Source: an uncultured Verrucomicrobia subdivision 3 bacterium
GTDB lineage: Bacteria > Verrucomicrobiota > Verrucomicrobiia > Limisphaerales > UBA11358
DNA length: 64,000 nt
Assembly (NCBI GenBank): GCA_903850425.1
Contig: CAINLR010000070.1
Span: 1-64,000 of the forward strand
Reading direction: 5' to 3'
A program made the translations under genes and the position numbers. The notes under the pieces were generated by a model, which was not told the origin of the DNA, did no database searches, and worked only from the letters and a program-made list of their open reading frames with translations. Shown in pieces: positions 7,623 to 33,570 of the stretch. Position 1 is the first letter of the stretch. Each line of letters begins with the position of its first letter.

Positions 7623-7657
7623 AACGGGACGTGGATGCACACCTTTCATATTTGAGT

Positions 7658-8044: not shown

Positions 8045-8064
8045 GCTCCCGGATCCGAATCTCA

Positions 8065-8110
8065 GCGCGACCAGTGCAGCGAGGATGCGAAGCGTCCGGA
8101 CTGGTCGTGC
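8065..8110 (-). promoter_or_regulatory. Nested inverted repeat upstream of regulator copy 1
   Basis: The outer arms are GCGCGACCAGT (8065-8075) and ACTGGTCGTGC (8100-8110). An inner stem is formed by GGATGC (8083-8088) and GCGTCC (8092-8097) around a GAA loop. It lies 20 nt upstream of the regulator start. The second regulator has the same structure at the same distance, with sequence changes that keep the inner stem paired. It could be an operator for the regulator or a structured leader RNA. Confidence 0.6.
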
Positions 8111-8275
8111 AATAATTTTCACCCCCGCAGTCACGTCTCCACCCAGAATTATTCCTTTCCACTACCCCATTTCCCCTTTTTGTTTTTCTTCCGGCAAAAT
8201 TTAATCGGTGTGCCTTGCCATTTGTGCTTGCAATGAAATCAGTGAAGGCGCAAACCGTTCGGGACAAAAGCATGG

Positions 8276-9994
8276 ATGAAAAAATGGCGCGCATTCCCCC
8301 TCCCGGTTCTGATTCTAGTCCTGATTGGAATCGGTCTGCTACTGCTGTTAACGCATGAGCCACGCTATCAAAACCGAACGTTGACCAGCTGGTTGCAGCA
8401 ATGCTGGGACACGCCGCTGATGGAAACGCAACGGCTTGCCGAAGCTCAGAACGCCATCCTTGGGATTGGTGCAAAGAAGGCGCTGCCGAAATTATTGAAA
8501 TTGGTTCAGTCTGAAGATGACCCGGTCAGCATGTCGATCATGCTCATTGGGGATGAATTGAGAATCAGCGATGATATCGGGGACCGCTTCATCCGCTGGC
8601 ATTCAGCCGAGGATTTTTGGTGGCTAGGTGAGAGAGGATTCGAAGTTTTGGGAACGAATGGCTCCCCCGCAGCTGAGGCACTGGGAAAACTCTTGAACAA
8701 ACCAAAGCGGCTTTTAGTCATCGGCCGATGTCTTGAATCCATCGGCAAACCGGCTGAGCTTGTCATTTGTCAGGCAGTGACTAATCAGGACGTGGCCGTC
8801 AGACAATGGGCCATTGAGCATCTTGCCTCCGTCACGGACGATGTCGAAGTCTATATCAACCGGATCAAACCCCGCCTCCTTGACTCCTCTGATGCCGTGC
8901 GCGCCACAACGGTGGACGCCATTGGCATTCAGACCAGCGCGCCGGAACTCGCCGTTCCGCTGTTAATCGAAGCGTTAAAAGATTCAGCGGTTACCGCCAA
9001 AGCAGCGGGAGCGCTCGCGAATTTCGGAACCAACGCGCTGGTCGCTTTCCCCATTCTGACCAACTTGGTCCAGGACGGCGGCCCCACTGTGGCGGGCGCG
9101 GCGTTGAAATCAATCATCATCATTGATCCAGAGCAGGCACTGCCCATTTTGACAAACTGCCTCGCTCGTGGAAAACCCGGAACTGCGGTGGCGCTAAAAG
9201 CACTCGTGGACGTTGCCCCTGATCAAGCCCTCCCGATAATTCTTGATCGTTTCCAATCGCCCGACACCGAAACGCGCCGCGTTGCGTTCCGGCTCCTGTG
9301 CCGTTATCCCCTGACTCCACCCGTTGAATCAGCCTTGCAAGCCGCTGCCGCTGATTCTGATCTCAAGATTGCCACCCAGGCCAAAAAAATTCTCACGGAA
9401 AATCACCTAAAGGCAAATCCACTTGAATCACAGTTTTTAGATGATCCTAGTTACGAGGGTAAGCGGCTTGGCGAATGGCTGAAAATTTATGAGCGTCAGG
9501 GGGATTATTCCTATTCCAAGGAAGCAACGAATGCGATCCATCACATTGGGACCAATGCCATTCCTGCGCTGCTGCGTCGGCTGGTTTATGTGAAATCACC
9601 GTTTGGCCTGCCCGATTATGATGTCAACATGGATGGGGTGCGGGGATTTATCACGTTAGGCGATCAAGCAACTCCTGCGTTACCGCAGTTGCAAGTCCTG
9701 CTGGATGGCACGAACCAAAGCCTGGTTCTATACGCCATGGTCTCTGCGCTGGGGACCGGCACGAATGCGATTCCGGTTTTGATTAAAGGGCTGACGAATC
9801 AATTCGCGGAGGTTCGCGGTGAAGCGGCGCATAGCCTCACCGAAGGCATCGCCGACCGATTTCCAGAGCACCGCCAATCGATCATTATCCTGCTCACGAA
9901 CCTACTGGCCGATCCCGATTCCGAAGTTCGTCTCAACGTGAAGGGCGATTTGCAAGAGCTGAATTCGCCGCCGCCGCCGGCCCCAAATAAATGA
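8276..9994 (+). CDS. Membrane-anchored HEAT-repeat protein
   Basis: A 572-residue protein with an N-terminal hydrophobic anchor at about residues 8-26 (LPVLILVLIGIGLLLLL) followed by a long helical-repeat region. Repeats of the HEAT type recur, for example DSSDAVRATTVDAIG, LIEALKDSAVTAKAAGALANFG and ADPDSEVRLNVKGDL, with the G-TNA turns typical of Verrucomicrobia and Planctomycetes HEAT proteins. It is probably an extracytoplasmic scaffold or binding protein; no enzymatic motif is visible. The C-terminus is Pro-rich. It overlaps the next gene by ATGA, so the two are probably made together. Confidence 0.75.
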   Translation: MKKWRAFPLPVLILVLIGIGLLLLLTHEPRYQNRTLTSWLQQCWDTPLMETQRLAEAQNAILGIGAKKALPKLLKLVQSEDDPVSMSIMLIGDELRISDDIGDRFIRWHSAEDFWWLGERGFEVLGTNGSPAAEALGKLLNKPKRLLVIGRCLESIGKPAELVICQAVTNQDVAVRQWAIEHLASVTDDVEVYINRIKPRLLDSSDAVRATTVDAIGIQTSAPELAVPLLIEALKDSAVTAKAAGALANFGTNALVAFPILTNLVQDGGPTVAGAALKSIIIIDPEQALPILTNCLARGKPGTAVALKALVDVAPDQALPIILDRFQSPDTETRRVAFRLLCRYPLTPPVESALQAAAADSDLKIATQAKKILTENHLKANPLESQFLDDPSYEGKRLGEWLKIYERQGDYSYSKEATNAIHHIGTNAIPALLRRLVYVKSPFGLPDYDVNMDGVRGFITLGDQATPALPQLQVLLDGTNQSLVLYAMVSALGTGTNAIPVLIKGLTNQFAEVRGEAAHSLTEGIADRFPEHRQSIIILLTNLLADPDSEVRLNVKGDLQELNSPPPPAPNK

Positions 9995-14857: not shown

Positions 14858-17188
14858 TTAGTCCCCATAGTTCTTCGGATCGGCTTTTTTGCCGGGTTGA
14901 ATCAAATGTTGTATGCCCGCCACTTGAGGAGCGATAGAGCCCAAGCGGCGACCCAGGGGATCGCACACCGCCAACACGACGCGGTTGGTGTCGTCTTTTT
15001 TGAGCAGGCCGGGCTGGCACAAGGCTTCGTGCAATCCTTTGGCTTTGGTCAATTCGTCAGGCTCAGTGCGGAGTTGGGACCAGGCGCTGTTCAAGGCGGC
15101 AATGATTTTCGGGTCGCGCAGTTTGTCCCGGGTTCGTATCCACAGCCTGGTATCAAGACGTGCCACGCCGGTGAACAGTTGAGCGGCGTTGTGTTCCTCC
15201 GCGCTAAGGGCCGAAGTCTCTGGTGTCGGCAGTTCCATATCCAGCCCGAGCGAGGCGAGCTCGGATCGGATGCTGGCGGCTTGGACGACAAACCGTGGAC
15301 GATACTCGAGCAGTGTGATGGACTGGGATCCAGCGCTTAGAATGAATCTCCCGGAATGTTTTTTACGTTCAGGTTTGAGGCCCAGCGCTGAAAACTTATC
15401 GGTGGCGTCGAGGATGGCTCGCAGATCCTGGTCTTGCTGCACGGCTTTCTTCGCCAGTGACAGCAAAAACATTTCCTCACTGCTCCAGTCGAACGCGACC
15501 GGTGCTGCTACTGGAACCGGTGTGATGACCTTGACTGGAGCCTTCGTGTTGACGTTGGTGTTGATGGTGGGGCTGATGGTGGGACTGACGTTGGTGTTGG
15601 CGCGGGGTTTTGAAGGAGGCACACGCGGGACAACAGTGGACGACTTTTTAGGTGCGCAGTCCTGCTCCAGTCCGAGAACCTTCGGTCCGATGGTGCCCAT
15701 GCGTTGAGCCATGGGATCACATACTGCAAACACGATGCGATTGACCTCGATCCAGTTGAGCTGGCGGCTCTGCATCAATGCCCAGTGGAGCCGCTTGGCT
15801 TTCACCAACTCATCGGGTTCGGTGGCGAGGTGTGGCCACTCACGTTGGAGCACCGATAGAATCGGTGGCTGCTTGAGCTTGTTACGGGTCTCAAGCCAGA
15901 GCCCCTCTCTGAGGTGCGCCAGGACGGTGAATTTCCGCGCGGCTTGATGCTCCCCTTCGTTGATGGGAGTGACCATGGTTGCCGGCGGGGTCACCGCCAG
16001 ACCCATCACGTCGAGTTCGTGTCGCACGCAGGCAGATTGCAGAAGGAACAACGGGCGATAATTGGGCAGGGTGATGGACTTCTCACCCTCACGGAGTGTT
16101 GCCGTGCCGTTGTTGTAATCTTCCTTCCACACCAGGCCCAGCGCGGCAAACTGCTCATTGGCGTTTGATATTTTATACAATTGCTGGCCATGGCGGGCGA
16201 CCCTTAGCCCAAGAGATAAGAGAAAATCTTCCTCGCTATTCCAGTTCAGTGCGACCGTTGGTGCGCAAGACAGGGTGATGGCTTTCTCGACGGACTTGGC
16301 GGGTTCGACGGTCCGTGTGGCCGGAATAATCAGCGCGGGCGGCATGATTATTTTGCTCTGGCGATATTCGACCGCGAGCGCCACTTCCTCGACCAATCCC
16401 GGCAAGCTGACAGTGAATCCGGAATTTCTCCGGGTCATCCCCAAGTCCAGGGAATTCAGGATCGGGCGGCGGATGCGAACGACCTCGTTGTCTCCCGTCG
16501 AGACGAGGTCGTAGCCGAAGAGTTTGACACCTTTGATGATCTGGTGCACCGAGGTGGGCGGCGTTGGCAGACACGCCAGCTGTTCGCAAAGATAGAGGCT
16601 GCCGCCGGCGGCGTGGCGTTGCTGCTTCACATCCTCCACTGAGGGAATCAGGTTCAGGCCTTTAGTTTTGCGCTCGAGGTTGAGTTCGCTGATGATGTAG
16701 TTGAAGAGCTCGCAGAATTGTCCCCACATGTTTTGGTTCCGGTCGCGCAGCAAAACGGGGATGCCACCAATGTCCAAAACGCTGGAAAATATGATGTTGA
16801 AATCAGCGCCTTTCTGTCGTCCATAGGAGACCCAGGGCGGAATGTGCCAGTTGTGGATCCCGATGGTTTTATCTAGAAAATTTTGGACGGTGCGGTCCAC
16901 GAAGTCGCGCTCGTGATCCAACAGCAGCACTCCATCCGCGAAGCGCGGCATCGCCCAATAGGCAATGTTTTCTACGTCGGTGTCGCCCGCGAGGACGCTG
17001 GCCTGTTTATACCAGGCAACCCGGTCTTCGCAGTCTTTGGCGAAGCTGTCCAACGTCGTATTCCCCATGCAAATCAGGTTTGTCAGGAGATAATTCAGGT
17101 GGTCGAGATCCTTTTTGTCCTTCAAATATTTCTTTTTCTTCGCCACCGCTTTTTCGGTTTTCAGCGCGTAGATGGTTGTGATGGCCAT
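14858..17188 (-). CDS. Large unknown island protein with a duplicated domain
   Basis: A 776-residue protein of unknown function. The N-terminal ~300 residues match nothing I recognise. Residues about 314-508 and 566-765 are two copies of one ~200-residue domain: compare NWNSEEDFLLSLGLRV with DWSSEEMFLLSLAKKA, YRPLFLLQSACVRHEL with YRPRFVVQAASIRSEL, and VFAVCDPMAQRMGTIGP with VLAVCDPLGRRLGSIAP. A Pro/Thr/Asn-rich linker separates them. It is the last gene of a five-gene minus-strand unit beginning at 19699. Its place just after a MobC-like gene is where a relaxase would often be, but no relaxase motif (HUH or metal-binding histidine triad) is visible. Confidence 0.7.
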   Translation of the reverse strand: MAITTIYALKTEKAVAKKKKYLKDKKDLDHLNYLLTNLICMGNTTLDSFAKDCEDRVAWYKQASVLAGDTDVENIAYWAMPRFADGVLLLDHERDFVDRTVQNFLDKTIGIHNWHIPPWVSYGRQKGADFNIIFSSVLDIGGIPVLLRDRNQNMWGQFCELFNYIISELNLERKTKGLNLIPSVEDVKQQRHAAGGSLYLCEQLACLPTPPTSVHQIIKGVKLFGYDLVSTGDNEVVRIRRPILNSLDLGMTRRNSGFTVSLPGLVEEVALAVEYRQSKIIMPPALIIPATRTVEPAKSVEKAITLSCAPTVALNWNSEEDFLLSLGLRVARHGQQLYKISNANEQFAALGLVWKEDYNNGTATLREGEKSITLPNYRPLFLLQSACVRHELDVMGLAVTPPATMVTPINEGEHQAARKFTVLAHLREGLWLETRNKLKQPPILSVLQREWPHLATEPDELVKAKRLHWALMQSRQLNWIEVNRIVFAVCDPMAQRMGTIGPKVLGLEQDCAPKKSSTVVPRVPPSKPRANTNVSPTISPTINTNVNTKAPVKVITPVPVAAPVAFDWSSEEMFLLSLAKKAVQQDQDLRAILDATDKFSALGLKPERKKHSGRFILSAGSQSITLLEYRPRFVVQAASIRSELASLGLDMELPTPETSALSAEEHNAAQLFTGVARLDTRLWIRTRDKLRDPKIIAALNSAWSQLRTEPDELTKAKGLHEALCQPGLLKKDDTNRVVLAVCDPLGRRLGSIAPQVAGIQHLIQPGKKADPKNYGD

Positions 17189-22002: not shown

Positions 22003-23379
22003 TTAATCGAACGTGCACTGAAACTCGTGCACAGACCCATCCGCAAGCTTCGCGCGAGCAGCTCCCGCGGGCAGGCGCGACAGCGTTTCTGCCGAAATCA
22101 ACGGCACCTCGGTGGGCACTTGCGTGACCTGGGCCGGCTCTGGCTCATCCGGTTCATCCGTGAGGAATAGCTGTGGCGGAGCCAGCGCTGGCACGGTCGT
22201 CCGGTGCGCGCGCATCACCAAGTGGGTGCCAAAGATGCGCTGTGCCAGCCGCAGCGTGGTCGGGCAGTTGTTCGTTAAAAATACCAACGTGCCGCATAAG
22301 GCCATCAGTTTATCCGTGATCGTATCGCCGCTCACCGCGTTGAGTCCGCTTAAATTTTGGCAGGCCAAAATAAATGATACACGGTTTGAGCGCGCCATCT
22401 CCATCGCAACATGTTCCGCTGATAAATGGTTTTGCCCGCTGAGGAGCCTATTGGCCTCGTCCATCACAATGGCGACCATGCGCTTTTGGTTGATGGGCAA
22501 CCGGGATCGCGAGAGGGCGAGCCGGAACAATGCCTCCTTAAGCAACATGCATCCGGGCCACAGTTCCTCGGCATGTTCCGCCTGGCCAACGTTGAGCACG
22601 ACGACCTTACCGCGCTGGACCACGTCATGCAGGTTCAGCGTCGGCCGCCCAGGCTCCGGATTAACGAGCCGGCTGAGCGGCGTGCGGGCCCACGGCGCCA
22701 GGATGTTGCCGACGGAAGCTGTGACGCACCCTCGGGTGGTGTCGGCTGGCAATCGCGACCATTCTTTCAAAGCAGCCGCAGAGGCTTCGGATAAGATGGG
22801 AGAGACCACAGAAACCCATTCCCGCAATTTTTCGTTGGTCTGGGTCAGTAGTCCGCGCGCCCTCTGTAAATGCTCCATTGCCAGCTGTCCGTGCCCGGCC
22901 TCGCGCAGGGTGGTTTGAGTTAACTCGATCAAGCTGGTTAGCAAATCCATTCTCGCGGTGGACCAAAATAATTCTTCGGATTTGGAGCGCTGGCCGGCCT
23001 CCGGACCGCCTAAAGACGAGGCCGACGTCAATTGCTGCGCGATTTGCGACGGCGTCAGGCTAGGATCGCCGATCGGATTAAATACTGCTTCGCTGGCGCC
23101 GACTCCCACGGTGATTAGATCATTTGTCCGGCCACAGGATTTAAGCGCGACCTCGACGATTGGTTTCAAATCGCCTTTGACGTCAAAAATGACCATTGCC
23201 GGCCGTAGTTCCGGTGAATGTAAATCCGCTGCAGCGAGTTGGGAAATGAGGGGACGTAGCACACCCCTGGTTTTACCGGAGCCCGTTCCGCCGATGCAAA
23301 TTAGGTGCAAAAAAATCCACTCCTGGGGAAAACGAATGCCGTAAAGATTGATGAGTTTGGGATTAAATGTGGTTTTCAT
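22003..23379 (-). CDS. VirD4/TraG-type coupling ATPase without membrane anchor
   Basis: A 458-residue ATPase of the type IV coupling protein class. Walker A GGTGSGKT is at residues 30-37, and Walker B is VAIVMDEANRLL. The C-terminal part (RVSFILACQNLSGL, ALCGTLVFLTNN) matches the TraM-recognition region of VirD4/TraG/TraD proteins. Such ATPases deliver DNA-protein complexes to a secretion channel. Classical members have two N-terminal membrane helices; here the Walker A motif begins 30 residues from the start and no helix precedes it. No other type IV secretion gene is in the window. The ATG at 23379 is preferred over 23427; it overlaps the ClpP-like gene by 17 nt. Confidence 0.8.
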   Translation of the reverse strand: MKTTFNPKLINLYGIRFPQEWIFLHLICIGGTGSGKTRGVLRPLISQLAAADLHSPELRPAMVIFDVKGDLKPIVEVALKSCGRTNDLITVGVGASEAVFNPIGDPSLTPSQIAQQLTSASSLGGPEAGQRSKSEELFWSTARMDLLTSLIELTQTTLREAGHGQLAMEHLQRARGLLTQTNEKLREWVSVVSPILSEASAAALKEWSRLPADTTRGCVTASVGNILAPWARTPLSRLVNPEPGRPTLNLHDVVQRGKVVVLNVGQAEHAEELWPGCMLLKEALFRLALSRSRLPINQKRMVAIVMDEANRLLSGQNHLSAEHVAMEMARSNRVSFILACQNLSGLNAVSGDTITDKLMALCGTLVFLTNNCPTTLRLAQRIFGTHLVMRAHRTTVPALAPPQLFLTDEPDEPEPAQVTQVPTEVPLISAETLSRLPAGAARAKLADGSVHEFQCTFD

Positions 23380-23974
23380 GGGTGTTGTTTTTATTGGGTT
23401 CAAGTGACCGGATAATGGAAGTTTCAAGCGTGAGCTTGCGCTCCACTACGTGATCGGCGATTCCCGCCTCAATGGCGGCCGACGCGCTCAGTATTCTGTG
23501 GGTGGCAAAGGTTTTGGCTGGGAGCTTTAGTTCCGCGAGCAGTTCTTGGTGCTGCTGTTGCAACAATCGCTCCGTCTGCTGCTGGGCCGGTTCGTTGGCA
23601 GACCGATGCAGCCCGATGACGGTTTTCTGCAAACCGTGAATCCAGTCTGGTGGGGAAAGCGAGACGAGCGTGTGCGGGAGCAGATAACGTTGGCCGACCG
23701 TGCCGCAGGCCAAAATTAACGGCAGCCAGCCAGTTAATAATCCAAATCCCGCCGTGCGCAGTGGCGAACGCACTGTGCGCATCACTTCGGCAATCATCAT
23801 GGCTTCGACCGCTGAAATTGGTGCTGGATCATTTCCCCCGACGACATAAATCGTGACCGGCTTGGCGTGGTGTTTGCCCGCGTGCAAGCGGAGCAGTCCG
23901 TCAACAATTGCGTTCGCAGTCAACCCCGTGCCGACGGGCAGAGTTCTGCCCCGGAAATCATAAAGTGGTTCCAT
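23363..23974 (-). CDS. ClpP-fold protein lacking the catalytic triad
   Basis: 203 residues with the layout of a ClpP/crotonase-fold subunit: VTIYVVGGND (ClpP: IYINSPGG), then the helix AVEAMMIAEVMRTVRSP, the block GQRYLLPHTLVSLSPP (ClpP: KRYALPNSRIMIHQP), and RILSASAAIEAGIADHVV (ClpP: RFLSAEEAKEYGLVD). Aligning by eye, the serine position becomes Gly82, the histidine Ser107 and the aspartate His159, so all three catalytic residues are lost. It should form a ring or hydrophobic-pocket scaffold rather than cut peptides. It overlaps both neighbours by 17 nt and is thus coupled to the coupling ATPase. Confidence 0.65.
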   Translation of the reverse strand: MEPLYDFRGRTLPVGTGLTANAIVDGLLRLHAGKHHAKPVTIYVVGGNDPAPISAVEAMMIAEVMRTVRSPLRTAGFGLLTGWLPLILACGTVGQRYLLPHTLVSLSPPDWIHGLQKTVIGLHRSANEPAQQQTERLLQQQHQELLAELKLPAKTFATHRILSASAAIEAGIADHVVERKLTLETSIIRSLEPNKNNTHENHI

Positions 23975-25121
23975 ATAGGTCTCCCTTTCGTTTTAGTTCT
24001 TGGCGGTGTTGCAACGCTTCCAAAATCAACGAGGCTTCGCGGTCATAGGTGAATTTTCCCAGTCGATCGCCGAGCCAGTAGCTCAGCGGCGCGACGTCGA
24101 GGTCCAGCGCGTGGGCCAATTCGAACGCCCACAATGGATCCGCCGGCTGCGACAGCGCGAGTCCAGCGTTCTCTGGTTCGAGGTGAAGATAAAAGTTGAA
24201 CCAGGCACATCCCCCCTGATGCGTGGTTAGCTGCCGCAGTTCATCCTTCATGCTGTGCCACTCTGGCGGTGCCAAAGTATGACGGGACCAGAAGATCGCG
24301 GCGTAACCGGCAGCGGTGGCCTGTGCGTTTTTCAGCGTGGAGAGCCAGAGGCTCCGCGCCGCAGGCGGTGCCGTTGGATTGAGCACCAACATGGAAACAG
24401 CGGCATGGTTGTCTTCGCAGGCGGCGAGTCCGGTCGTCCGCAACCAGTTGCTGAAATCGGCCTCGGTTCCAAGGCGCGCGACCATCAAACCCGAAGCGAG
24501 ATCGCGTCGGCCGCGGGCTTGCTTCAGGCAGGCGCTGCCAAATCCTGGGACGCGGCTGGCTCCGAGCGTGGCGATGTTATCGCCGGCTAGGGGCGGAATG
24601 ATTTGGTCGCGCTCGCTGGCGGTGTGCAAACTCTCAGCGGCCAGGTAAGCCCCTTGGGGAGTTTTTAAAGCCGTTGCCAATAATTGTCGGCGCAGACGTG
24701 ATCCTGGTTCGGGACTGAACGCGAAGAGCAGCAAGCCCGCGACCAAGGCATCATCGGGACCATCCCAATTCTCCTGCCGGAACGGATCCTGCATGAGATC
24801 GCAGGCCTCCGCCAATTGCTGTGACCGTTTCTGCCGGTTCACCCAAGCCAAACACGGTTTTGCCCAAGTTCCAGGCAGGTCGGCTATGCTGAGGCTGGAA
24901 TTTTGCTGAAAAAAGGCGATCGGCGAGGTTTGGAACGGTGGTGGCTGAAGCCTTGGATAGCGAGGAAGTTCTGGCGGTCGCGATAGATGATCCAGAATGA
25001 ACGGAGACATCTGCCCATCGAGTTGTTCGGCCGCGTTGCGGGCCGTGTCCACATCCATGCTGGGGCCAGCAATGTAAAAGGCGAGCTGGGCGTGGATATT
25101 TGTTGGTTCAAGATTTGGCAT
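23958..25121 (-). CDS. Unknown island protein, paralogue A
   Basis: 387 residues, probably helical throughout. It is paralogous to the protein at 27182-28279: compare DALVAGLLLFAFSPEPGSRL with GAVAGMLLLALRPMPGSLR, and AIFWSRHTLAPPEWHSM with AIRWSQHTWPAAEWRQL. The family is unknown to me; the periodic helices could form a solenoid. The ATG at 25121 is chosen because the upstream gene stops 2 nt earlier. The open frame continues to 25340 only as a shadow of that gene. The 3' end overlaps the ClpP-like gene. Confidence 0.65.
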   Translation of the reverse strand: MPNLEPTNIHAQLAFYIAGPSMDVDTARNAAEQLDGQMSPFILDHLSRPPELPRYPRLQPPPFQTSPIAFFQQNSSLSIADLPGTWAKPCLAWVNRQKRSQQLAEACDLMQDPFRQENWDGPDDALVAGLLLFAFSPEPGSRLRRQLLATALKTPQGAYLAAESLHTASERDQIIPPLAGDNIATLGASRVPGFGSACLKQARGRRDLASGLMVARLGTEADFSNWLRTTGLAACEDNHAAVSMLVLNPTAPPAARSLWLSTLKNAQATAAGYAAIFWSRHTLAPPEWHSMKDELRQLTTHQGGCAWFNFYLHLEPENAGLALSQPADPLWAFELAHALDLDVAPLSYWLGDRLGKFTYDREASLILEALQHRQELKRKGDLYGTTL

Positions 25122-25122
25122 A

Positions 25123-25536
25123 TTAAGACTGGATGGATTGATGGATGGTGATGGTAAATTGGGTGCGGTCACAAAAGATGAGCAGGTCGGTCGGGGCCGG
25201 TCGCGTGCTCGTGGCGGAATCTTCCAGCCATTGGTCCGCGCAGCTGGCCTCGTAATTGAGCACTTGAATTGGCTGCGTCGCAGCGATGGCTTGAAGCTGT
25301 AAATCCCAGATCCCACCCGCGCGCCACCGGGGAAAGGCATCGGCGTTCTTGAGTGGCGGCAGTTTCACCCGCCACACCCTGGCGATTCCGGATTTGCCCG
25401 GGGAAAACTCGAATTTTAATTTTGCATCTTCGGCGTGAACACCGTTGCTGACGGTGACGTGCAGCTGGAGCCGCTTGGGGGACGGTGTGAGGGTTGGCGG
25501 CGCGTAAGGGTTGGGAATTCTGGGTCTGATGGACAT
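25123..25536 (-). CDS. Small unknown island protein
   Basis: 137 residues beginning MSIRPRIPNPY. It appears beta-rich (LQLHVTVSNGVHAEDAKL, KFEFSPGKSGIARVWRVKL, TDLLIFCDRTQFTITI). No family recognised. It is the first gene of the unit 25536-21473, just downstream of a strong minus-strand terminator, so its own promoter should lie in 25540-25616. Only one base separates it from paralogue A. Confidence 0.6.
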   Translation of the reverse strand: MSIRPRIPNPYAPPTLTPSPKRLQLHVTVSNGVHAEDAKLKFEFSPGKSGIARVWRVKLPPLKNADAFPRWRAGGIWDLQLQAIAATQPIQVLNYEASCADQWLEDSATSTRPAPTDLLIFCDRTQFTITIHQSIQS

Positions 25537-25616
25537 GGTATTTGTTTTGATGTGTTGTTGTTTATTGGTGAAGCCAAAAACGTCGTTGTCTTGGCTTGCC
25601 GCTGAATGGCACAAAG

Positions 25617-25651
25617 AAAAAATGGGATGCCTACGAATGTAGGCATCCCAT
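25617..25651 (-). terminator. Rho-independent terminator (minus strand)
   Basis: A perfect 13-bp stem, ATGGGATGCCTAC at 25622-25634 with its complement at 25639-25651, and a 4-nt loop. Read on the minus strand it is followed by six T residues. It lies directly after the gene 25673-26233 and separates the two minus-strand units. Confidence 0.85.
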
Positions 25652-25672
25652 GAGACAATATTGACCTGCTGG

Positions 25673-26233
25673 TCAGCTCGCTGGAGGATTTTTCTGCCGG
25701 CGATTTGATTGGTGCAATATCTGACCCGCCGCAAAGAAGTTGGTGACCGACGTTACAATCAGTTTATCACGCTTTTGAATCTGCGTGTTTGAAATGCCCG
25801 TCATCGAGGCGAGCTCCGCCGCGCGCTCGCGCAGATCGGTCAGTTGTTGTGCGAATTGTTCGCTGTGGAATCGCAAGGTCACGCCCTGCTTCGATTCAGC
25901 ATAGGCGAGCTCATCCAATCGGCAAAAAATCAGGGACATGAAAAGAGCCATGTCAACAATCTGCTCCGGTGGTGAATTGACGGTGACGGAGTGCAGTCGT
26001 AAAAAGTAGCCGGCCCAAGGCCAGGACTCGTTCAGCCGCTGAAAAAATTTGCGGGACTCAGGATCAGCAAATATGTCAGCGGGTTTGGTGACACCTTCCA
26101 CCCGCAGGCGCACCGCGCCGCCGAGGCCGTAAATTTCCTCATTGAGGATAACGGCGGGATCCACGGGATGAACCACATCGTCAACGTTGCCGGCCGCAAT
26201 TTGCGCCCGGGTGATGAGCCAGTTTTTATTCAC
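25673..26233 (-). CDS. Unknown island protein
   Basis: 186 residues, no recognised family. The middle is hydrophobic-helical (QIVDMALFMSLIFCRLDELAY), and the C-terminal part contains ELASMTGISNTQIQKRDKLI, which could be a helix-turn-helix-like element. It starts 24 nt after the ankyrin protein gene and ends at a strong terminator, so it is the last gene of the unit starting at 28279. Confidence 0.6.
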   Translation of the reverse strand: MNKNWLITRAQIAAGNVDDVVHPVDPAVILNEEIYGLGGAVRLRVEGVTKPADIFADPESRKFFQRLNESWPWAGYFLRLHSVTVNSPPEQIVDMALFMSLIFCRLDELAYAESKQGVTLRFHSEQFAQQLTDLRERAAELASMTGISNTQIQKRDKLIVTSVTNFFAAGQILHQSNRRQKNPPAS

Positions 26234-26257
26234 AATCGTTTTTATCGTTTGCCCTGA

Positions 26258-27142
26258 TCACAACATGGCCGCGCAAACGCGCGGATATATGGCGATTTTA
26301 TCACGAAGTTCAGGGGTCAGCCTCCGGTCCTTCACGAGCAGTTCCAATTTTTCGCGGTGCGATTTACGATTTGGGTTGAGCATTCTAGCGAGTTCAGGGC
26401 AGGCCAACAGGTTGTTGATCGCTGTCTCTGGGCTATATGTCTGGGCAAATTCTTTAACAGCAATGTCCCATGCGGTCCGACCCAAATTGTCGCGACTGCC
26501 CTTGAGTTCGGCCATCGTGCACGGGATTAAATTTCCAAAATTGGCGGCGGTGTGCAACGGAGTCATCCCATATTTATCGCGGCCGCGTTTCAATTCCTGC
26601 ACCGTTATGTTTTTTGGGAAAACTCCACGATAAGCTGCCTTGTGCAATAAGCTGCTGCTGCTCGTTTTAATTTTTGCCAGATCTACGGCGGATAAATCTG
26701 CGGGGAATTTGGGTTTGATGGCGTATTCATCAAATAACGCAAAGATCGCGCGCCGTTTATTTCGTCCCCTGGTTTCCAAGAGGTCAACCTTGGTCAGTCC
26801 GCGCGGGTAAAGCCCCTTGGAAATTACCAGATGCAAAGCCGTTTCATTTTTTCGGCGCGACGAGTTCATCGGAATCACCGCCAGATCTTTCGCTGTCATC
26901 CCTGGCGGAAACTTTTTCCAAAAAAGCGCCGACCCGACATCCTCCTCGTTGAAGGCCGTTTTTCTCTGCTGGAAGGTCAGGCAAAGTTGCCCGTCCTGGC
27001 TGGCAACGATATTGAAGGTGGTGAGATGCGGTTGGTAGTTGAGCTTTAGCAGCGCCGGCTTCAAGGCTTCCTGGAGCGCGCGCTGCTGTTCGGGAGCAAG
27101 CTCCAGTTTTTTAAATTTAGATTTTTTATTTTTGGTTTTCAT
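26258..27142 (-). CDS. Ankyrin-repeat protein of the island
   Basis: 294 residues. The N-terminus is strongly basic (KTKNKKSKFKKLEL). Ankyrin-like repeats follow: NETALHLVISKGLYP, SSLLHKAAYRGVFP, YGMTPLHTAANFGNLIP and NLGRTAWDIAVKEFA. The spacing is longer than the standard 33 residues because conserved inserts of the type 'TVQELKRGRDK' occur between repeats. It should be a protein-binding scaffold. It sits between paralogue B and an unknown gene in the same unit. Confidence 0.7.
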   Translation of the reverse strand: MKTKNKKSKFKKLELAPEQQRALQEALKPALLKLNYQPHLTTFNIVASQDGQLCLTFQQRKTAFNEEDVGSALFWKKFPPGMTAKDLAVIPMNSSRRKNETALHLVISKGLYPRGLTKVDLLETRGRNKRRAIFALFDEYAIKPKFPADLSAVDLAKIKTSSSSLLHKAAYRGVFPKNITVQELKRGRDKYGMTPLHTAANFGNLIPCTMAELKGSRDNLGRTAWDIAVKEFAQTYSPETAINNLLACPELARMLNPNRKSHREKLELLVKDRRLTPELRDKIAIYPRVCAAML

Positions 27143-27181
27143 AATGGTTTTTATTTCGTGGTGAAAATGAGGAGGAGTGGA

Positions 27182-28279
27182 TCAGGATAATTTCCGGCGC
27201 CGGCTCAACCAGCGGAGCGCGAATCGGGCTTCATCGTCCGCCGGATTTTCGGCGAACTGGTGTTGCATGCGCTCGCGAAGGTCATGGGCCGGATTTTTTG
27301 AGAAGTCGGCGAGCTCAGACTGCCAAAGCACCGACACATTTGATTCTGCCAACGCTTCCGGGATGCCTTCAGGCTCAATATCCCGGAACCAGTGGAACCA
27401 ATGCTGACCTCGGTCACGGCAGACGGTGGATTTTAAATTTAAACGCAACTGCCTCCATTCAGCAGCGGGCCACGTGTGTTGGGACCACCGGATTGCTTGA
27501 TAAGTCAAACGAGGATTTGCATTTTGCAGGCGGGCGCACCAAGTGGATTTGAAATCATGAGGTGCTGATGGTAGCAGCGCCAGCGCCGTGCCGGCGGCGT
27601 GGGAATTTACCAACCCAATGGTCGCAACCCGATCCAACCACTCAGCCGCGTTCGGCTGCTGGAGCGAAATTGTGGACGACCAAATATCGTGCTGGCGCAA
27701 CGCCAATTTAACCAGTGGTGCGGCGAGATCCGGATTCTCACGATGCAAGCCGGCGGTAAGCCGTGGATCATTCGCAACCCCCGCGAGCAATCTGTTGGAT
27801 TCATTTTCATAAACCACGCCCAGCAGCGCAAAAAACATACCCCACCAATTTTTACTGCAATGGTCGAGCAGTGCCGCTCGCAATGATCCCGGCATTGGTC
27901 GCAGTGCCAGCAACAGCATGCCGGCGACGGCGCCATCCGTGTCTTTATCCAAATCGTTGGGAACGTCATCCCCAGAATTTTGACAGGCAGGATACAGCCG
28001 CTGGACCTGCGCGTTTCGTCGACAGCGTTGTCTGTGAAAATAATGCGCCGCCCGCCAGTGCGGAGGTAATTTGCGGAGCACGAATGGGCCGAGGTTTGCC
28101 ACGAGGGCCTCGGGTTGCTCTTGAATTGGCAGGCCGATGGAATCGCCGCCGACGTCAGGCAGGATGCCGCAGTAATTCATTTTCTCATGGAGACGTGGCC
28201 ACGGTAAATACGGCAGTAATTTTGACAGCGAAGACCGGGCTTCTGTCAGGCTCATCGTTAGATTGGGTTTGGAATTCAT
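27182..28279 (-). CDS. Unknown island protein, paralogue B
   Basis: 365 residues, paralogous to the protein at 23958-25121 over most of its length. Shared landmarks are the GMLLLALRPMPGS block, an asparagine/alanine 'LQNANPRLTYQAI' block, and the aromatic QHWFHWFRDIEPE block (paralogue A: CAWFNFYLHLEPE). Function unknown. It is the first gene of the unit 28279-25673. Upstream are a small hairpin (28302-28323) and the terminator of the preceding gene. Confidence 0.65.
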   Translation of the reverse strand: MNSKPNLTMSLTEARSSLSKLLPYLPWPRLHEKMNYCGILPDVGGDSIGLPIQEQPEALVANLGPFVLRKLPPHWRAAHYFHRQRCRRNAQVQRLYPACQNSGDDVPNDLDKDTDGAVAGMLLLALRPMPGSLRAALLDHCSKNWWGMFFALLGVVYENESNRLLAGVANDPRLTAGLHRENPDLAAPLVKLALRQHDIWSSTISLQQPNAAEWLDRVATIGLVNSHAAGTALALLPSAPHDFKSTWCARLQNANPRLTYQAIRWSQHTWPAAEWRQLRLNLKSTVCRDRGQHWFHWFRDIEPEGIPEALAESNVSVLWQSELADFSKNPAHDLRERMQHQFAENPADDEARFALRWLSRRRKLS

Positions 28280-28301
28280 ATTTTATATTTCAGGTGGTTG
28301 T

Positions 28302-28323
28302 AGCGGAGCGAAAACGTTCCGCT
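28302..28323 (-). other. Short hairpin upstream of paralogue B
   Basis: AGCGGAGCG (28302-28310) pairs with CGTTCCGCT (28315-28323) through one G-T pair, around an AAAA loop. It lies 22 nt upstream of the start codon, about the same distance as the hairpins before the two winged-helix regulators, though the sequence is different. No T-run follows, so it is not a terminator; it may be an operator or leader structure. Confidence 0.4.
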
Positions 28324-28348
28324 GTGGTTGCTAATGTATGCACCCAGC

Positions 28349-28381
28349 AAAAACGGGAGCCCGGCTGATGCCGGACTCCCG
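28349..28381 (-). terminator. Rho-independent terminator (minus strand)
   Basis: A 12-bp GC-rich stem with a 4-nt loop at 28354-28381, followed on the minus strand by five T residues. It ends transcription of the gene at 28555-28953 before the unit starting at 28279. Confidence 0.85.
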
Positions 28382-28554
28382 CTCGTAATCCCGGTGGATT
28401 TATTTCACCGATTTGCTTTTATTTCTATCGTTGCAGCCATTCGTTTTGAAACGTCTGACTGCGGAAATTCGTTTTAGATCTTTTACTCCTCAGTCGGGGC
28501 ATGCCGTTGGAAACGGCCGGACCTTTCTGTTTTCTCACGCGCGCGCAGGTGCGA

Positions 28555-28953
28555 TTACGCCTTGCAGTATTGGCTGAAACTCGAAGACAGCAGCCCGCCC
28601 AGTTGCCTGTGCCGCCGGTCGATTGCCTTGGTGGACAGGCCGGCTTGCTGCCCCAGCTCATAAATGCCCACCGCCGCTTCGCGAAAGAAATTCTCCACTT
28701 CATCCTGCTTCGGCAGCACAACGTAGTCCGCGCTTGCCGCCCGGTCGATGACCACGAGATTCTCGAGTTGGCCGCAGGCATAAATAAAAAAGAAAGCCGA
28801 GGCGAGGTCGCAGAAAAAAGCTGCGGAACCCGGCCTCCAGCGCCGGCCCAGGGCCCGCATAAATGATCTCACTTCCTGAACCACGATGGGGTTTAGCTGG
28901 CAGTCGATGTAGCCGCTGATCTTGATATCGAGTGTCCCGCACAGAAATTTCAT
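28555..28953 (-). CDS. Unknown small protein at the right end of the island
   Basis: 132 residues from the ATG at 28953. It contains a hydrophobic middle (AFFCDLASAFFFIYACG) and a C-terminal helical part (VGIYELGQQAGLSTKAIDRR). No family recognised. A longer frame to 29046 exists, but that part overlaps the leader of the divergent gene at 29016. It has its own terminator downstream at 28349-28381. Confidence 0.5.
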   Translation of the reverse strand: MKFLCGTLDIKISGYIDCQLNPIVVQEVRSFMRALGRRWRPGSAAFFCDLASAFFFIYACGQLENLVVIDRAASADYVVLPKQDEVENFFREAAVGIYELGQQAGLSTKAIDRRHRQLGGLLSSSFSQYCKA

Positions 28954-29015
28954 CTCGGATGCAGTCGCAAACAATGTTGTATTGGCCCCCGAAGAGGAGG
29001 AAGGAGGCGTGCCGG

Positions 29016-29420
29016 ATGAAGCCCCACATGAATAATCCAAAATCAAAGCCGACGTGGATGCCTTATGAGACGATTCGTTCGCGCCGCGATACGGATTACG
29101 AACAGTTGGTGGCTGGCGCTCCGCCTTGCTTCAAATCATTCTACTTGCCCGAGCCCAAACTGGTCTTTGCGAACGGCCAGTTGAGTGCGGATGCTAAGGA
29201 GGGCTTGACGCTTTACGGGCCGGCAAATATCGGTGGCAAAACGCCGCGCACCATCCGGGTTGTGACACCGTGCAATATGTTTCATCCCCGCAAGCTGGGT
29301 CACATCCGCGAAGGTAGTATTTCACAGATCCTCAACTCAGGGCCGGCGGAGACATTCCGCCAGTCTCACAAGCAGGATGCCTACTGCCGAAATTGTGCCT
29401 GGCTGGGAGGGGACGCATGA
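29016..29420 (+). pseudogene. Chimeric ORF: short-Argonaute-like start fused to SPASM end
   Basis: A 134-residue frame built from two unrelated pieces. Residues 43-82 (LPEPKLVFANGQLSADAKEG, then LTLYGPANIGG and TIRV) resemble the N-terminus of short prokaryotic Argonaute proteins, which begin with an EEPKxxFAxGQ-like strand and a GPL segment. Residues 83-134 (CNMFHPRKLGHIREGSISQI and DAYCRNCAWLG) are the C-terminal part of a SPASM domain from a radical SAM enzyme, with its last cysteines. AAGGAGG at 29001-29007, 8 nt before the ATG, is a genuine start site. The likely junction is near 29262. Both parent genes are therefore truncated. The downstream glycosyltransferase overlaps by ATGA, as it would have with the intact radical SAM gene. 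Confidence 0.65.
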
Positions 29421-30430
29421 GTTCGTTGGTGCATCTGCCCAGTGGCGAGACGTTTGATTACTGGTGGGAGGAAATGCGCGGGCGTGCCGGCCGAAAGCGG
29501 TTCTTGTTGACCAAAATTCTTGAGGTCATCGCCTATAAAGCTTCAAAAAATGGCTGTGCCACAAGTTCAAAACACCAACCCAAATCGGTGCTCGAACTCC
29601 CCCCTCATATTTTAAGAAACAGCGTTAATCAACGTTCACAGGCCGTGGTAATTATTCCGGCAAAGTGTTCAACGGAATCCCAGTTGGCATTGTTGCAACG
29701 CTGTATCGACAAACTAGTTCAACAATCGGCATCGATTATTGTCATCAATGACGGATCCAAAGTATGGTCCCGACTGCCAGAGCCAGTTCAGGTTTTGACC
29801 AATGCCAAATCGAAAGGGCCGGCGGCATCGCGGAATCAAGGGCTTGATGTTGCAGTAAAGAATGAAGCCGATGTCATTTTGTTTACGGATTCAGACTGTA
29901 TCCCGAACTCGGATTGGGTTTCGGAAGCCATCGCCGGTCTAGTTGAGAACCCCTATGTGCACTGCTTGTCGGGTCGCACTAATTCTGCAAACACTACTTG
30001 GTTTGATAAATATCATGAAATCAACGGCACCCTGAATGGTCGATGTTTCAAAGGCACGAATATATTACTATATGGGCCAACCTGTAACTTGACCATTACC
30101 CGTCACCTGGCGGAGCGTTTCAGGTTTGATGAATCATTTCCGAACGCTGCGTGCGAAGACATTGATTTTTGCTTTCGCCTCCTACAGCAAGGATTTCGTG
30201 CGATTCATCGTCAATCATTGGTCGTCAATCACGACTATCAATACCGGCATGGAGATTGGGTTTCCAATGCTGGCAGATTTATGAGGCAGTTTAGAAAATA
30301 CGCGCAGGCGGAGTCGCTGTTAGTGGCGAAGTTTCCAAATTATTATCCATATTTTGGCCAGACCCAGGAGATAGGCACGTATAAGAATCCTGGTTGCTTA
30401 GTGCTGGTAAATAGCAATCGGCGGCAGTAA
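29417..30430 (+). CDS. GT2-family glycosyltransferase
   Basis: 337 residues with the GT-A fold landmarks: a nucleotide-binding start (VVIIPAKCS, IIVINDGS), the metal-binding acidic motif FTDSDCIPNSDWV, and the acceptor-side acidic motif ACEDIDFCFRLLQQG. Family 2 enzymes transfer a sugar from an NDP-sugar to polysaccharide, lipid or peptide acceptors. The N-terminal ~80 residues lie outside the catalytic domain. It overlaps the SPASM fragment by 4 nt. A radical SAM/SPASM enzyme and a glycosyltransferase may originally have acted in one modification pathway that was broken by the island insertion. Confidence 0.85.
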   Translation: MSSLVHLPSGETFDYWWEEMRGRAGRKRFLLTKILEVIAYKASKNGCATSSKHQPKSVLELPPHILRNSVNQRSQAVVIIPAKCSTESQLALLQRCIDKLVQQSASIIVINDGSKVWSRLPEPVQVLTNAKSKGPAASRNQGLDVAVKNEADVILFTDSDCIPNSDWVSEAIAGLVENPYVHCLSGRTNSANTTWFDKYHEINGTLNGRCFKGTNILLYGPTCNLTITRHLAERFRFDESFPNAACEDIDFCFRLLQQGFRAIHRQSLVVNHDYQYRHGDWVSNAGRFMRQFRKYAQAESLLVAKFPNYYPYFGQTQEIGTYKNPGCLVLVNSNRRQ

Positions 30431-30677
30431 CCAATCGGTTGAATTGTCCAAAATCTCTTCTCTGTGGTAACTATACTTATAAGGTTCGTAGAATCCTTTA
30501 AATATAATTTGACAGTATTAACCTAGGTGAACTAATTTAGCCTCAGGTAAAAGTATAAGTCTGACTCCTGCGTCACGTCTCGCCTCATAGTTACCTTCAC
30601 GCGTTGCTCCGCCAGCGCAAAAATAACAATAGTGATAGTGGGCTTAGTGTGCCCGCGAATCAGAAAGGTAACTGTTT

Positions 30678-31118
30678 ATGAAGAAAATTATACTTGGACA
30701 TAAGGGGACGGAACTTGTTTTTAAGGCCGTTGCGACCGCGCTCGGCTTGAAACATCGCAAAGTGAATCCGTCCGGAAAATTTGACCAAGCCGGACGATTC
30801 TACCTCCAGACATTGTGCCCGCACTGCGCTGGCATTCGCAGTCCCAGCCGAGCATACCCGTATTCGGCGCTGGTTCATGGCCGCACCTTAAAGCACGTCT
30901 ATCACGAATTCCCGCTGGCTTCAAAAATGACTGAATCGGAATTCATCAAGCTGGCAAGAGCGGCGGAGAAGTTGGCGAATAAAGATACCCCCAACTGGGT
31001 GGCCGACTTTAAGGTTGCTCTTCTGCATGCGATACAAGGCGGCGCCGTTAAGGGAATGCATGTCAGATTTCGCGCAGACGCCGCTTTAACACCAGAGGAG
31101 CTCGCAGCGGTGCTATAA
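30678..31118 (+). CDS. Unknown protein with CPHC motif
   Basis: 146 residues, no recognised family. A CPHC pair at residues 47-50 suggests a metal or redox site, but only one pair is present. A ribosome-binding site (GAAAGG) precedes the ATG. It is the first of three close plus-strand genes ending with a metallopeptidase-like protein. The 247 nt upstream are AT-rich and hold possible promoter boxes (TTGACA at 30509-30514), with no other gene. Confidence 0.6.
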   Translation: MKKIILGHKGTELVFKAVATALGLKHRKVNPSGKFDQAGRFYLQTLCPHCAGIRSPSRAYPYSALVHGRTLKHVYHEFPLASKMTESEFIKLARAAEKLANKDTPNWVADFKVALLHAIQGGAVKGMHVRFRADAALTPEELAAVL

Positions 31119-31157
31119 GCTTGGACCGTTATTTAACAAACGTCGTTAACCAAAATC

Positions 31158-31664
31158 ATGAGCTTTTTCTTCGCCTTTTCAGTCATGGGGCTCGAGGCCA
31201 CCGTGGACGAGGTCTGCGACAGAAGGCGCTGTGAAGTGCGCGTGTTTAAACAGAAAGCCACGCCCGACCGACCGGCCCACGTTTCCTTTGCTGGCTCTGA
31301 CAGCCTCATCTCATCGAGGCAGGCGATGGCCATCGCCGGATTGATTCAAGTTGGGGCGCGTATGGCAGAGGCATTTGATACCATCCAACCTCTGGTGACG
31401 AGTCTGGGCAAACTTGTTTTAAAATATGATGCGCAAGTCGGCCTGGAAATTGAATTGACGCCGGATGAACGGAATGTGTTGGACCAGGTGCGCGTGCTTG
31501 ATCATCTCTTGGCGCTGCTCTCAGCCCTGACCGCCCAGTCGATCGAATCCCTCCTCCGAACGGTGAAGCGCCGTTCGTGGCAGGACTTGCGCGGTCTGCC
31601 GGCGGCGGATTTTGAAAACCTGTTAATAAAAGGCTCACCCGAATCAACCTGTGAATTATTATGA
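31158..31664 (+). CDS. Unknown protein, middle of the metallopeptidase cassette
   Basis: 168 residues, mostly helical (SRQAMAIAGLIQVGARMAEA and VLDQVRVLDHLLALLSALTA). No family recognised. It overlaps the metallopeptidase-like gene by ATGA, suggesting that the two proteins are co-produced. A role as partner or inhibitor of the peptidase is only a guess. Confidence 0.6.
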   Translation: MSFFFAFSVMGLEATVDEVCDRRRCEVRVFKQKATPDRPAHVSFAGSDSLISSRQAMAIAGLIQVGARMAEAFDTIQPLVTSLGKLVLKYDAQVGLEIELTPDERNVLDQVRVLDHLLALLSALTAQSIESLLRTVKRRSWQDLRGLPAADFENLLIKGSPESTCELL

Positions 31665-32416
31665 AAATGACCGCCATCAACCTCAAGCCGCAGATTAAAG
31701 CCCCTCAATTCAAGGATGAAAATATTGGTCCGCAGAAAAGGCGCGACGTCATGACCGAACAGCAACGGATGTATCAAACCTGTATTCACGAGGCGGCGCA
31801 CGCGGTGTTTACCTACTGCTTGAATGGAGCGCTGGAGCGCGATGGCTGCTCTATAGACTCTTGTGATGAAGGTGTCGCCAGAACGGATTTATACTCCTGG
31901 GAACCAGCGGATGAAGCCGTGATGACCATGGCTGGGGCCACGGCTGAACTGGTCTGGCTGGGGCACCCCAGCCGGTCAACCCGCGCAAATTTTCAATGGT
32001 GGTATGAAAACGAGCGTCGTTACACCCCTGACATGGGTCGAACCGATTCCCAAACGCAGTTAGAAATCGCCGAAGCACTTCGCCCTGATGACAAATACGG
32101 CATCATGGGAGAGTGGGATTGGAAAGTGAACCGCATGCTCAAGGATCCGGTGATTTGGAACACCATCATTGGCGTTGCCAACAGATTATATGCGGAACAG
32201 GAATTGGACGGTGAAGCGGTCGAACGAATCATCATGCGGATTGTAAAACAGGCGCAGGCCACTGGTTTTCCGGAGCCCACCAAATACAACCGGCTGCTAT
32301 ATGAGCTGCGCAATAATTTTAAGAAGTTCATTCAAGAGCGGCGGGCGCAGAGACCATCATGGGAAATTGACATTAAGGACATTTTGGCAATGCGTTCAGC
32401 GGCTGCCTCAAAGTAA
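31661..32416 (+). CDS. HEAAH metallopeptidase-like protein
   Basis: 251 residues with the zinc-peptidase motif CIHEAAHAVFTYCLNG at about residues 41-56, of the HExxH type and closest in form to the peptidase part of FtsH (M41, HEAGHA). A possible third ligand region follows within EPADEAVMTMAGATAELVW, resembling the M41 pattern in which an aspartate after a 'AGxxAE' helix binds zinc. No ATPase domain is attached. Function and substrate are unknown. It is the last gene of a three-gene unit beside the island. Confidence 0.65.
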   Translation: MKMTAINLKPQIKAPQFKDENIGPQKRRDVMTEQQRMYQTCIHEAAHAVFTYCLNGALERDGCSIDSCDEGVARTDLYSWEPADEAVMTMAGATAELVWLGHPSRSTRANFQWWYENERRYTPDMGRTDSQTQLEIAEALRPDDKYGIMGEWDWKVNRMLKDPVIWNTIIGVANRLYAEQELDGEAVERIIMRIVKQAQATGFPEPTKYNRLLYELRNNFKKFIQERRAQRPSWEIDIKDILAMRSAAASK

Positions 32417-32496
32417 AACATCAGCTTCTGTATTCAAGGCGCCTCCACGGGTTCGGGCTTCAGGCGCTGGCCTGTTTTCGATAATCTGTCGCCGCG

Positions 32497-33570
32497 ATGT
32501 ATCGAGTCATCCTTCATCTGGACATGGACGCTTTTTTTGCGTCCGTGGAGCAGCGCGATGATCCGAAACTACGGGGCCAGCCGGTGATTGTTGGTGCGCC
32601 GCCCACCCAGCGTGGCGTGGTCTGCGCCGCGAGCTACGAAGCCCGGAAGTTTGGCGTGCGTTCTGCCCTGCCCAGCGCCACCGCCGGTCGGCTGTGTCCC
32701 AAAGGCATTTTCGTCCGCCCGCGCATGGACGCCTACCGCGAGGAATCCCACCGGATCATGGAGATCATCGCTACCACCGGGGCCATCGTGGAACAGATGT
32801 CCGTGGATGAGGCCTATGTGGACGTATCGGCGATCTGTCAGGCGGAAACTGCCGACGCTTCACTGTTGCTGGCCCTGCCATTGGCGCGGGATTTGAAACA
32901 GCGGATTCTGTCGGAGCGCCAGCTCACGGCGACCATCGGCATCGCGTCGAACAAGCTTCTGGCGAAGATTGCCAGCGACCATCAAAAGCCAGATGGCCTG
33001 ACGGTGATCACCGATCAGGAAAAAGTTTCGTTCCTGCGACCGCTGCCGGTGCGCACACTTTATGGCGTCGGCAAGGTCACGGAGCAGACTTTGAACAAGG
33101 TGGGCATAGTCACGATCGGCGATTTGCAGGATTACGCCGGCGACTTGCGCGCGCAGGTCGGTTCGTTCGGGCCGAAGCTCAAACAGTTTGCATTCGGCGA
33201 AGACGACCGGCCGTTGGAAATCGGCGACGAGATCAAGAGCATCTCGGGCGAGGAAACCTTTCTCAAAGACACCGACGACCGGAAGATTCTGCGCGTGTGC
33301 CTGAAAGAACAGGCGGCGGATATTTCAGCGCGGCTCAAACATAAACGGCTGGGCGCGCACACGGTCCAGGTGAAGGTTCGCTACACCGACTTCACGACGT
33401 TGACGCGCCAGATTTCCGTGGAGGAACCGCTGACCGAGGCCGCCGACATTTACCGGCTCGGCTGTTTTCTGCTGGGCCGGGAAAAACTCGTGTCACGACC
33501 ACTGCGCCTGCTGGGACTGGGCGTCAGTAATTTGCGCGAGCCGACGACCAGGCAATTGGCACTGCTGTAA
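32497..33570 (+). CDS. dinB: DNA polymerase IV (Y family)
   Basis: 357 residues, the usual length of DinB. The catalytic acidic motifs are LDMDAFFASVEQ at the N-terminus and MSVDEAYVDVS at about residues 103-113. The thumb helix-hairpin-helix region (YGVGKVTEQTLNKVGI) and the little-finger domain follow. It copies past DNA lesions with low fidelity. No LexA box was seen upstream, and it appears to be transcribed alone. Confidence 0.95.
   Translation: MYRVILHLDMDAFFASVEQRDDPKLRGQPVIVGAPPTQRGVVCAASYEARKFGVRSALPSATAGRLCPKGIFVRPRMDAYREESHRIMEIIATTGAIVEQMSVDEAYVDVSAICQAETADASLLLALPLARDLKQRILSERQLTATIGIASNKLLAKIASDHQKPDGLTVITDQEKVSFLRPLPVRTLYGVGKVTEQTLNKVGIVTIGDLQDYAGDLRAQVGSFGPKLKQFAFGEDDRPLEIGDEIKSISGEETFLKDTDDRKILRVCLKEQAADISARLKHKRLGAHTVQVKVRYTDFTTLTRQISVEEPLTEAADIYRLGCFLLGREKLVSRPLRLLGLGVSNLREPTTRQLALL

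What the first reader, a model, noticed from the sequence alone, without database searches (positions are those of the whole stretch)
29016..29420. Recombination scar: Argonaute-like start joined to a SPASM end
Seen: one ORF with a good ribosome-binding site whose first part resembles the N-terminus of short Argonautes and whose last part is a radical SAM SPASM end, in frame. It marks the right island border precisely (near 29262) and implies that an Argonaute defence gene on the element and a chromosomal radical SAM gene were both truncated.
Basis: partly seen in the sequence, partly recalled or inferred. Interest (0 to 1): 0.7.

Follow-up and report, generated by a model that had tools for sequence, protein, structure and literature searches.

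The report
Argonaute–radical SAM recombination scar
A small hybrid gene was made when a broken-off piece of a bacterial anti-phage (Argonaute) gene was joined, in frame, to the tail of an unrelated enzyme gene carried on mobile DNA; it is a real but essentially ordinary relic of DNA rearrangement.

Summary
ORF 29016-29420 (134 aa) is an in-frame chimera, and each parent was found intact in the same genus. Residues 1-82 are the start of the short Argonaute of a SPARTA-type (TIR-APAZ + short pAgo) operon. The piece 28957-29262 is 92.5% identical to an intact system in MAG palsa_1443 and also holds the last 25 codons of TIR-APAZ. Residues 83-134 are the SPASM end of a radical SAM enzyme. The piece 29260-30413 is 83% identical to an intact radical SAM-glycosyltransferase operon in MAG bin-264. 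Three bases (TTG, 29260-29262) fit both parents. The missing parts of both genes are absent from the own genome. No fused relative was found.

Two parts of the interpretation fail. The radical SAM operon is not ordinary chromosome: it is rare (4 of 320 genomes of the order) and lies beside a MobF relaxase in two of them. And 29262 is not a single island border: sharp edges also lie at 28957 and about 30413.

Best reading: two accessory cargo operons fused by an illegitimate deletion or join at 3 bp of homology. The chimera has no known activity; the downstream glycosyltransferase is intact. Misassembly is unlikely but reads were not available. Low interest.

The parts
28957..29262 (+). SPARTA scrap: last 25 codons and stop of TIR-APAZ plus first 82 codons of the short Argonaute
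   Evidence: 92.5% gap-free DNA identity to L005 7942-8247 (intact TIR-APAZ 6572-8020 and pAgo 8001-9629)
28957..29035 (+). tail of TIR-APAZ gene (DAVANNVVLAPEEEEGGVPDEAPHE*), without start
   Evidence: translation and codon comparison with L005
29016..29420 (+). chimeric ORF, 134 aa: Argonaute N-terminus (1-82) fused in frame to SPASM C-terminus (83-134)
29002..29007 (+). AGGAGG ribosome-binding site, inherited from the Argonaute gene
   Evidence: sequence; the GGAGG core is also present in L005
29260..29262 (+). junction: TTG fits both parents (3-bp microhomology)
   Evidence: alignments with L005, and with G041, G014 and G214, which all read TTTGTGAC
29262..29420 (+). C-terminal 52 codons of a radical SAM/SPASM enzyme; radical SAM core missing
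   Evidence: Pfam PF13186; 90% aa identity to L006
29417..30430 (+). intact family-2 glycosyltransferase; its ATG overlaps the stop of the chimera (ATGA)
   Evidence: PF00535 E 1.1e-14; dN/dS 0.08 against G041
30413..30413 (.). right edge of homology with the radSAM-glycosyltransferase operon (G041; 30380-30390 in G214 and G014)
28555..28956 (-). remaining part of a minus-strand ORF of unknown family that runs through the left edge into the Argonaute scrap
   Evidence: no relatives in 320 genomes of the order nor in viral contigs

Best explanation
The ORF is a recombination scar between two pieces of accessory (cargo) DNA. A SPARTA-type defence operon (TIR-APAZ followed by short Argonaute) and a radSAM-radSAM-glycosyltransferase operon, both reading rightwards, were joined inside the Argonaute and the second radical SAM gene. 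The join used 3 bp of shared sequence (TTG), most simply as one deletion between neighbouring operons or as an end-joining or template-switch event. A second breakpoint at 28957 removed the rest of TIR-APAZ. Shown: both parents, both breakpoints of the Argonaute piece, the microhomology, absence of the missing parts, and the intact glycosyltransferase. Inferred: the order of events, the deletion mechanism, and that the 134-aa product has no enzymatic function. It lacks nearly all of MID-PIWI and the whole radical SAM core. It may still be translated from the old Argonaute start and so keep ribosomes arriving at the overlapping glycosyltransferase start codon.
For: Gap-free 92.5% and 83% DNA matches that meet at 29260-29262. 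Intact parents with full domains: TIR_2 E 9.5e-22, pAgo_I E 1e-148, Radical_SAM and SPASM. The missing parts of both parents are absent from the own genome. Three right-parent homologues in different contexts all start matching at the same base 29260. No fused relative in 195 relatives, 320 genomes of the order, or genome contigs (L007 is an intact Argonaute). Differences from the parents are mostly synonymous (dN/dS 0.09 Argonaute piece, 0.07 SPASM piece), as expected if the parents diverged while functional and the join is recent. Mobile nature of the right parent: MobF relaxase beside it in G014 and G214.
Against: No sequencing reads and no second genome of this species, so the join rests on one assembly. 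The direct parents are not known; the relatives differ by 7.5% and 17%. Three bases of shared sequence arise by chance in about 1 of 20 random joins (my own estimate), so microhomology-driven joining is only weakly supported. No Ku gene was found, so classical bacterial end joining is not indicated.
Confidence: 0.86

Rival explanations
1. Assembly artefact: two unrelated contigs were wrongly joined at or near 29262.
For: The window is one contig of a draft genome in 197 contigs with 3.7% estimated contamination; reads are not available.
Against: Repeat-driven misjoins need a shared repeat of k-mer length. The region 28200-31700 has no second copy in the own genome except 31419-31700, well away from the join, and the parents share only 3 bp at the join. 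No run of N. The 306-bp piece is bounded by breaks on both sides, which would need two misjoins. The frame is kept.
Confidence: 0.07
2. The chimera has been kept because it works: either as a small protein, or as a translated leader that feeds ribosomes to the overlapping glycosyltransferase start codon. (Compatible with the scar as origin; the confidence is for present function.)
For: Argonaute ribosome-binding site and start kept; join is in frame (1 in 3 by chance); ATGA overlap with the glycosyltransferase kept as in G041; glycosyltransferase under purifying selection.
Against: No conserved relative of the fusion; an ORF this short stays open by chance if the event is recent; radical SAM core and MID-PIWI are lost; no consensus promoter found upstream. 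Polarised changes on the SPASM piece (52 codons) are too few to show selection on the fused protein itself, and the Argonaute piece has no close outgroup.
Confidence: 0.15
3. 29262 is the right attachment-site border of an integrative element, made by a site-specific integrase cutting in a chromosomal radical SAM gene.
For: The join lies between a stretch with a VirD4-like gene on the left and other genes on the right.
Against: The radSAM-glycosyltransferase piece is itself mobile cargo and ends at about 30413; no other part of the radical SAM gene is left in the genome; the right flank is not syntenic among relatives, so no empty site could be read.
Confidence: 0.05

Closest known systems
SPARTA (short prokaryotic Argonaute with TIR-APAZ)
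   Same: Left half is the start of its short Argonaute with the TIR-APAZ tail in the same overlapping order as in intact L005.
   Different: Only 306 bp are left; no TIR, almost no APAZ, no PIWI. It cannot be a working SPARTA system.
Radical SAM/SPASM enzymes with a partner glycosyltransferase
   Same: Right half is the SPASM end; followed by the intact family-2 glycosyltransferase as in G041, G014 and G214.
   Different: The radical SAM core and the first radical SAM gene of the operon are missing.
Chimeric ORFs made by illegitimate recombination
   Same: Sharp, non-homologous join with a few shared bases, two truncated parents, no conserved relatives.
   Different: Happens to be in frame and preserves a start site and a gene overlap.

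Membership tests
SPARTA | TIR-APAZ partner gene | tested here: not met
   Only the last 25 codons remain at 28957-29035; no other copy in the own genome. Parent L005 has it: TIR_2 E 9.5e-22, APAZ-type profile E 2e-32.
SPARTA | short Argonaute with MID and PIWI | tested here: not met
   Only residues 1-82 of 542 remain; parent L005 full length, pAgo_I E 1e-148.
radical SAM/SPASM enzyme | radical SAM core with CX3CX2C motif | tested here: not met
   No PF04055 match in the chimera; parent L006 has it.
radical SAM/SPASM enzyme | SPASM domain | tested here: met
   PF13186 E 2.7e-8, profile positions 16-66 of 67, so its first part is missing.
illegitimate recombination product | abrupt change of parentage with little or no shared sequence | tested here: met
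   Identity falls from over 80-90% to background at 28957 and 29260-29262; 3 bp shared at the latter.
illegitimate recombination product | join present in the organism, not only in the assembly | not testable with these tools
   No reads; indirect evidence only.

The most novel reading that the evidence does not exclude
The lineage repeatedly makes in-frame gene chimeras in its accessory DNA. A second case (dinB codons 1-113 joined in frame to the end of another accessory gene) lies in contig C134 of the same genome, so an active shuffling process that favours short in-frame joins may create new leaders or proteins for mobile operons.
Probability: 0.05. Interest if true: 0.6.

Novelty: new member of a known kind. 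Interest (0 to 1): 0.24.

Why it matters
It gives a base-precise example, with intact relatives of both parents in hand, of a defence system being lost to rearrangement in a mobile region. It also shows that a radSAM-radSAM-glycosyltransferase operon travels beside MobF relaxase genes in this order (Limisphaerales-type Verrucomicrobia). As a gene in its own right the chimera is probably inert.

Tried and rejected
Fused architecture in relatives: none found; the Planctomycetota hit L007 that seemed to cross the junction is an intact Argonaute, and its match past residue 82 is a chance extension. Second copies of the missing parts in the own genome: none. Origin of the left neighbour (28555-28956): no relatives in 320 genomes of the order or in viral contigs. 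Empty site through the right flank: genes of the flank lie on different contigs in relatives, so synteny cannot define the border. Junction sequence in viral contigs: none. SPARTA Argonaute in viral contigs and chimera in plasmids: none. Ku-type end joining: no Ku gene found in the own genome (the control found it in Bacillus subtilis). VirD4-like gene of the left stretch: only weak matches (21-25% identity) in plasmids, none in viral contigs. Structure prediction of the chimera was not run: a 134-aa product with two partial domains would not decide between the readings.

Full report
Observation. The ORF at 29016-29420 is real and open. Its last part is a SPASM domain above Pfam's cut-off. Its first part matches the start of short Argonautes in PADLOC and in solved structures. 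A scan of genome contigs with the whole protein returned three loci: one matching only residues 1-82 at 95% identity (L005), one matching only residues 83-134 at 90% (L006), and an intact, more distant Argonaute (L007). At DNA level 28957-29262 matches L005 at 92.5% and 29260-30413 matches L006 at 83.0%, both without gaps, and both matches stop abruptly.

Left parent. L005 lies in MAG palsa_1443 (G015 here, same genus). It carries a TIR-APAZ gene (6572-8020; TIR_2 E 9.5e-22, APAZ-type profile E 2e-32) overlapping a short Argonaute gene (8001-9629, 542 aa; pAgo_I E 1e-148; best solved relatives are short Argonautes), among restriction and other defence-like genes. This is the SPARTA arrangement described in PMC11156904 and PMC10474274. 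The window keeps only the last 25 codons of TIR-APAZ and the first 82 codons of the Argonaute.

Right parent. L006 (MAG bin-264, G041, same genus) carries two radical SAM genes and a glycosyltransferase gene; the second radical SAM gene has the radical SAM core and SPASM. The same three-gene operon is in G014 and, in another family of the order, in G214. There it lies beside a MobF relaxase gene, and the shared stretch is 90% identical between G014 and G214. It occurs in only 4 of 320 genomes of the order, counting the window's fragment. It is therefore most likely mobile cargo, not a fixed chromosomal gene. The match of the window begins at 29260 against all three copies and ends at about 30380-30413.

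Junction. The left parent reads CGGGTTGCCGCC, the right parents read TTTGTGACGCC, the window reads CGGGTTGTGACACC: TTG at 29260-29262 fits both. The reading frame is kept. The missing parts of both parents are nowhere else in the own genome. Apart from itself the region 28200-31700 matches the own genome only at 31419-31700, so no repeat is present that would explain a misjoin. Reads were not available, so this is indirect.

Age and function. Differences between the Argonaute piece and L005 are mostly synonymous (12 synonymous, 4 non-synonymous codons; dN/dS 0.09), as in the SPASM piece (0.07) and the glycosyltransferase (0.08) against G041. Most of this divergence thus arose while the genes worked, and the scar is probably recent (inference). 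The chimera lacks the radical SAM core and nearly all of MID and PIWI, so an enzymatic or guide-binding role is not expected (inference). The glycosyltransferase is intact and its start codon overlaps the stop of the chimera (ATGA), as in the parent; the chimera could serve as a translated leader (inference, untested).

Mechanism. The simplest history is that the two operons once lay near each other in the same orientation in an accessory region and a deletion fused them at 3 bp of shared sequence; a further break at 28957 removed the rest of TIR-APAZ. No Ku gene was found, so replication slippage or another Ku-independent route is more likely than classical bacterial end joining. The left neighbour (28555-28956) has no known relatives, so the left breakpoint cannot be resolved further.

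Border claim. The DNA to the right of 29262 is itself accessory and has its own edge near 30413. It is followed by a block (31419-33570) that has a second copy in contig C134 of the same genome. The join is therefore one of several breakpoints in a mosaic rather than the right border of an island. Relatives do not keep the order of the right flank, so an empty site could not be read.

Verdict. Real and base-precise, with intact relatives of both parents identified. Ordinary in kind.

Noticed in passing
L041 (G000:C134) 15231-15842: A second in-frame chimera in the same genome: dinB codons 1-113 joined to the end of a gene like window 31158-31664, followed by a further copy of the peptidase-like gene and a dinB copy.
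   Followed up: partly
L006 6397-9181; L024 5525-8306; L049 6923-9704: Mobile radSAM-radSAM-glycosyltransferase operon; the glycosyltransferase is distantly like mycofactocin MftF (E 3.6e-28, far below the family cut-off) and the radical SAM proteins resemble several maturases. In G014 and G214 it lies beside a MobF relaxase. Possibly a peptide or cofactor modification cluster.
   Followed up: partly
L041 10867-14784 and L006 2457-6374: A nuclease/ATPase pair like SbcD-SbcC, 85% identical between the own genome and G041; in G041 it directly precedes the radSAM-glycosyltransferase operon, in the own genome it precedes the dinB chimera instead.
   Followed up: partly
window 31419-33570: Block of accessory genes with dinB that has diverged copies (80-84%) in contigs C134 and C141 (dinB only) of the same genome.
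   Followed up: partly
window 22003-28279: Run of minus-strand genes with a VirD4-like coupling protein, a Clp-protease-like protein and an ankyrin-repeat protein; the coupling protein has only weak plasmid matches.
   Followed up: partly
L005 28-15913: Defence island of MAG palsa_1443 around the intact SPARTA system: a restriction/methylation enzyme, a candidate defence protein PDC-M32A, a NERD/UvrD-like helicase and an AAA-type restriction-like protein.
   Followed up: no
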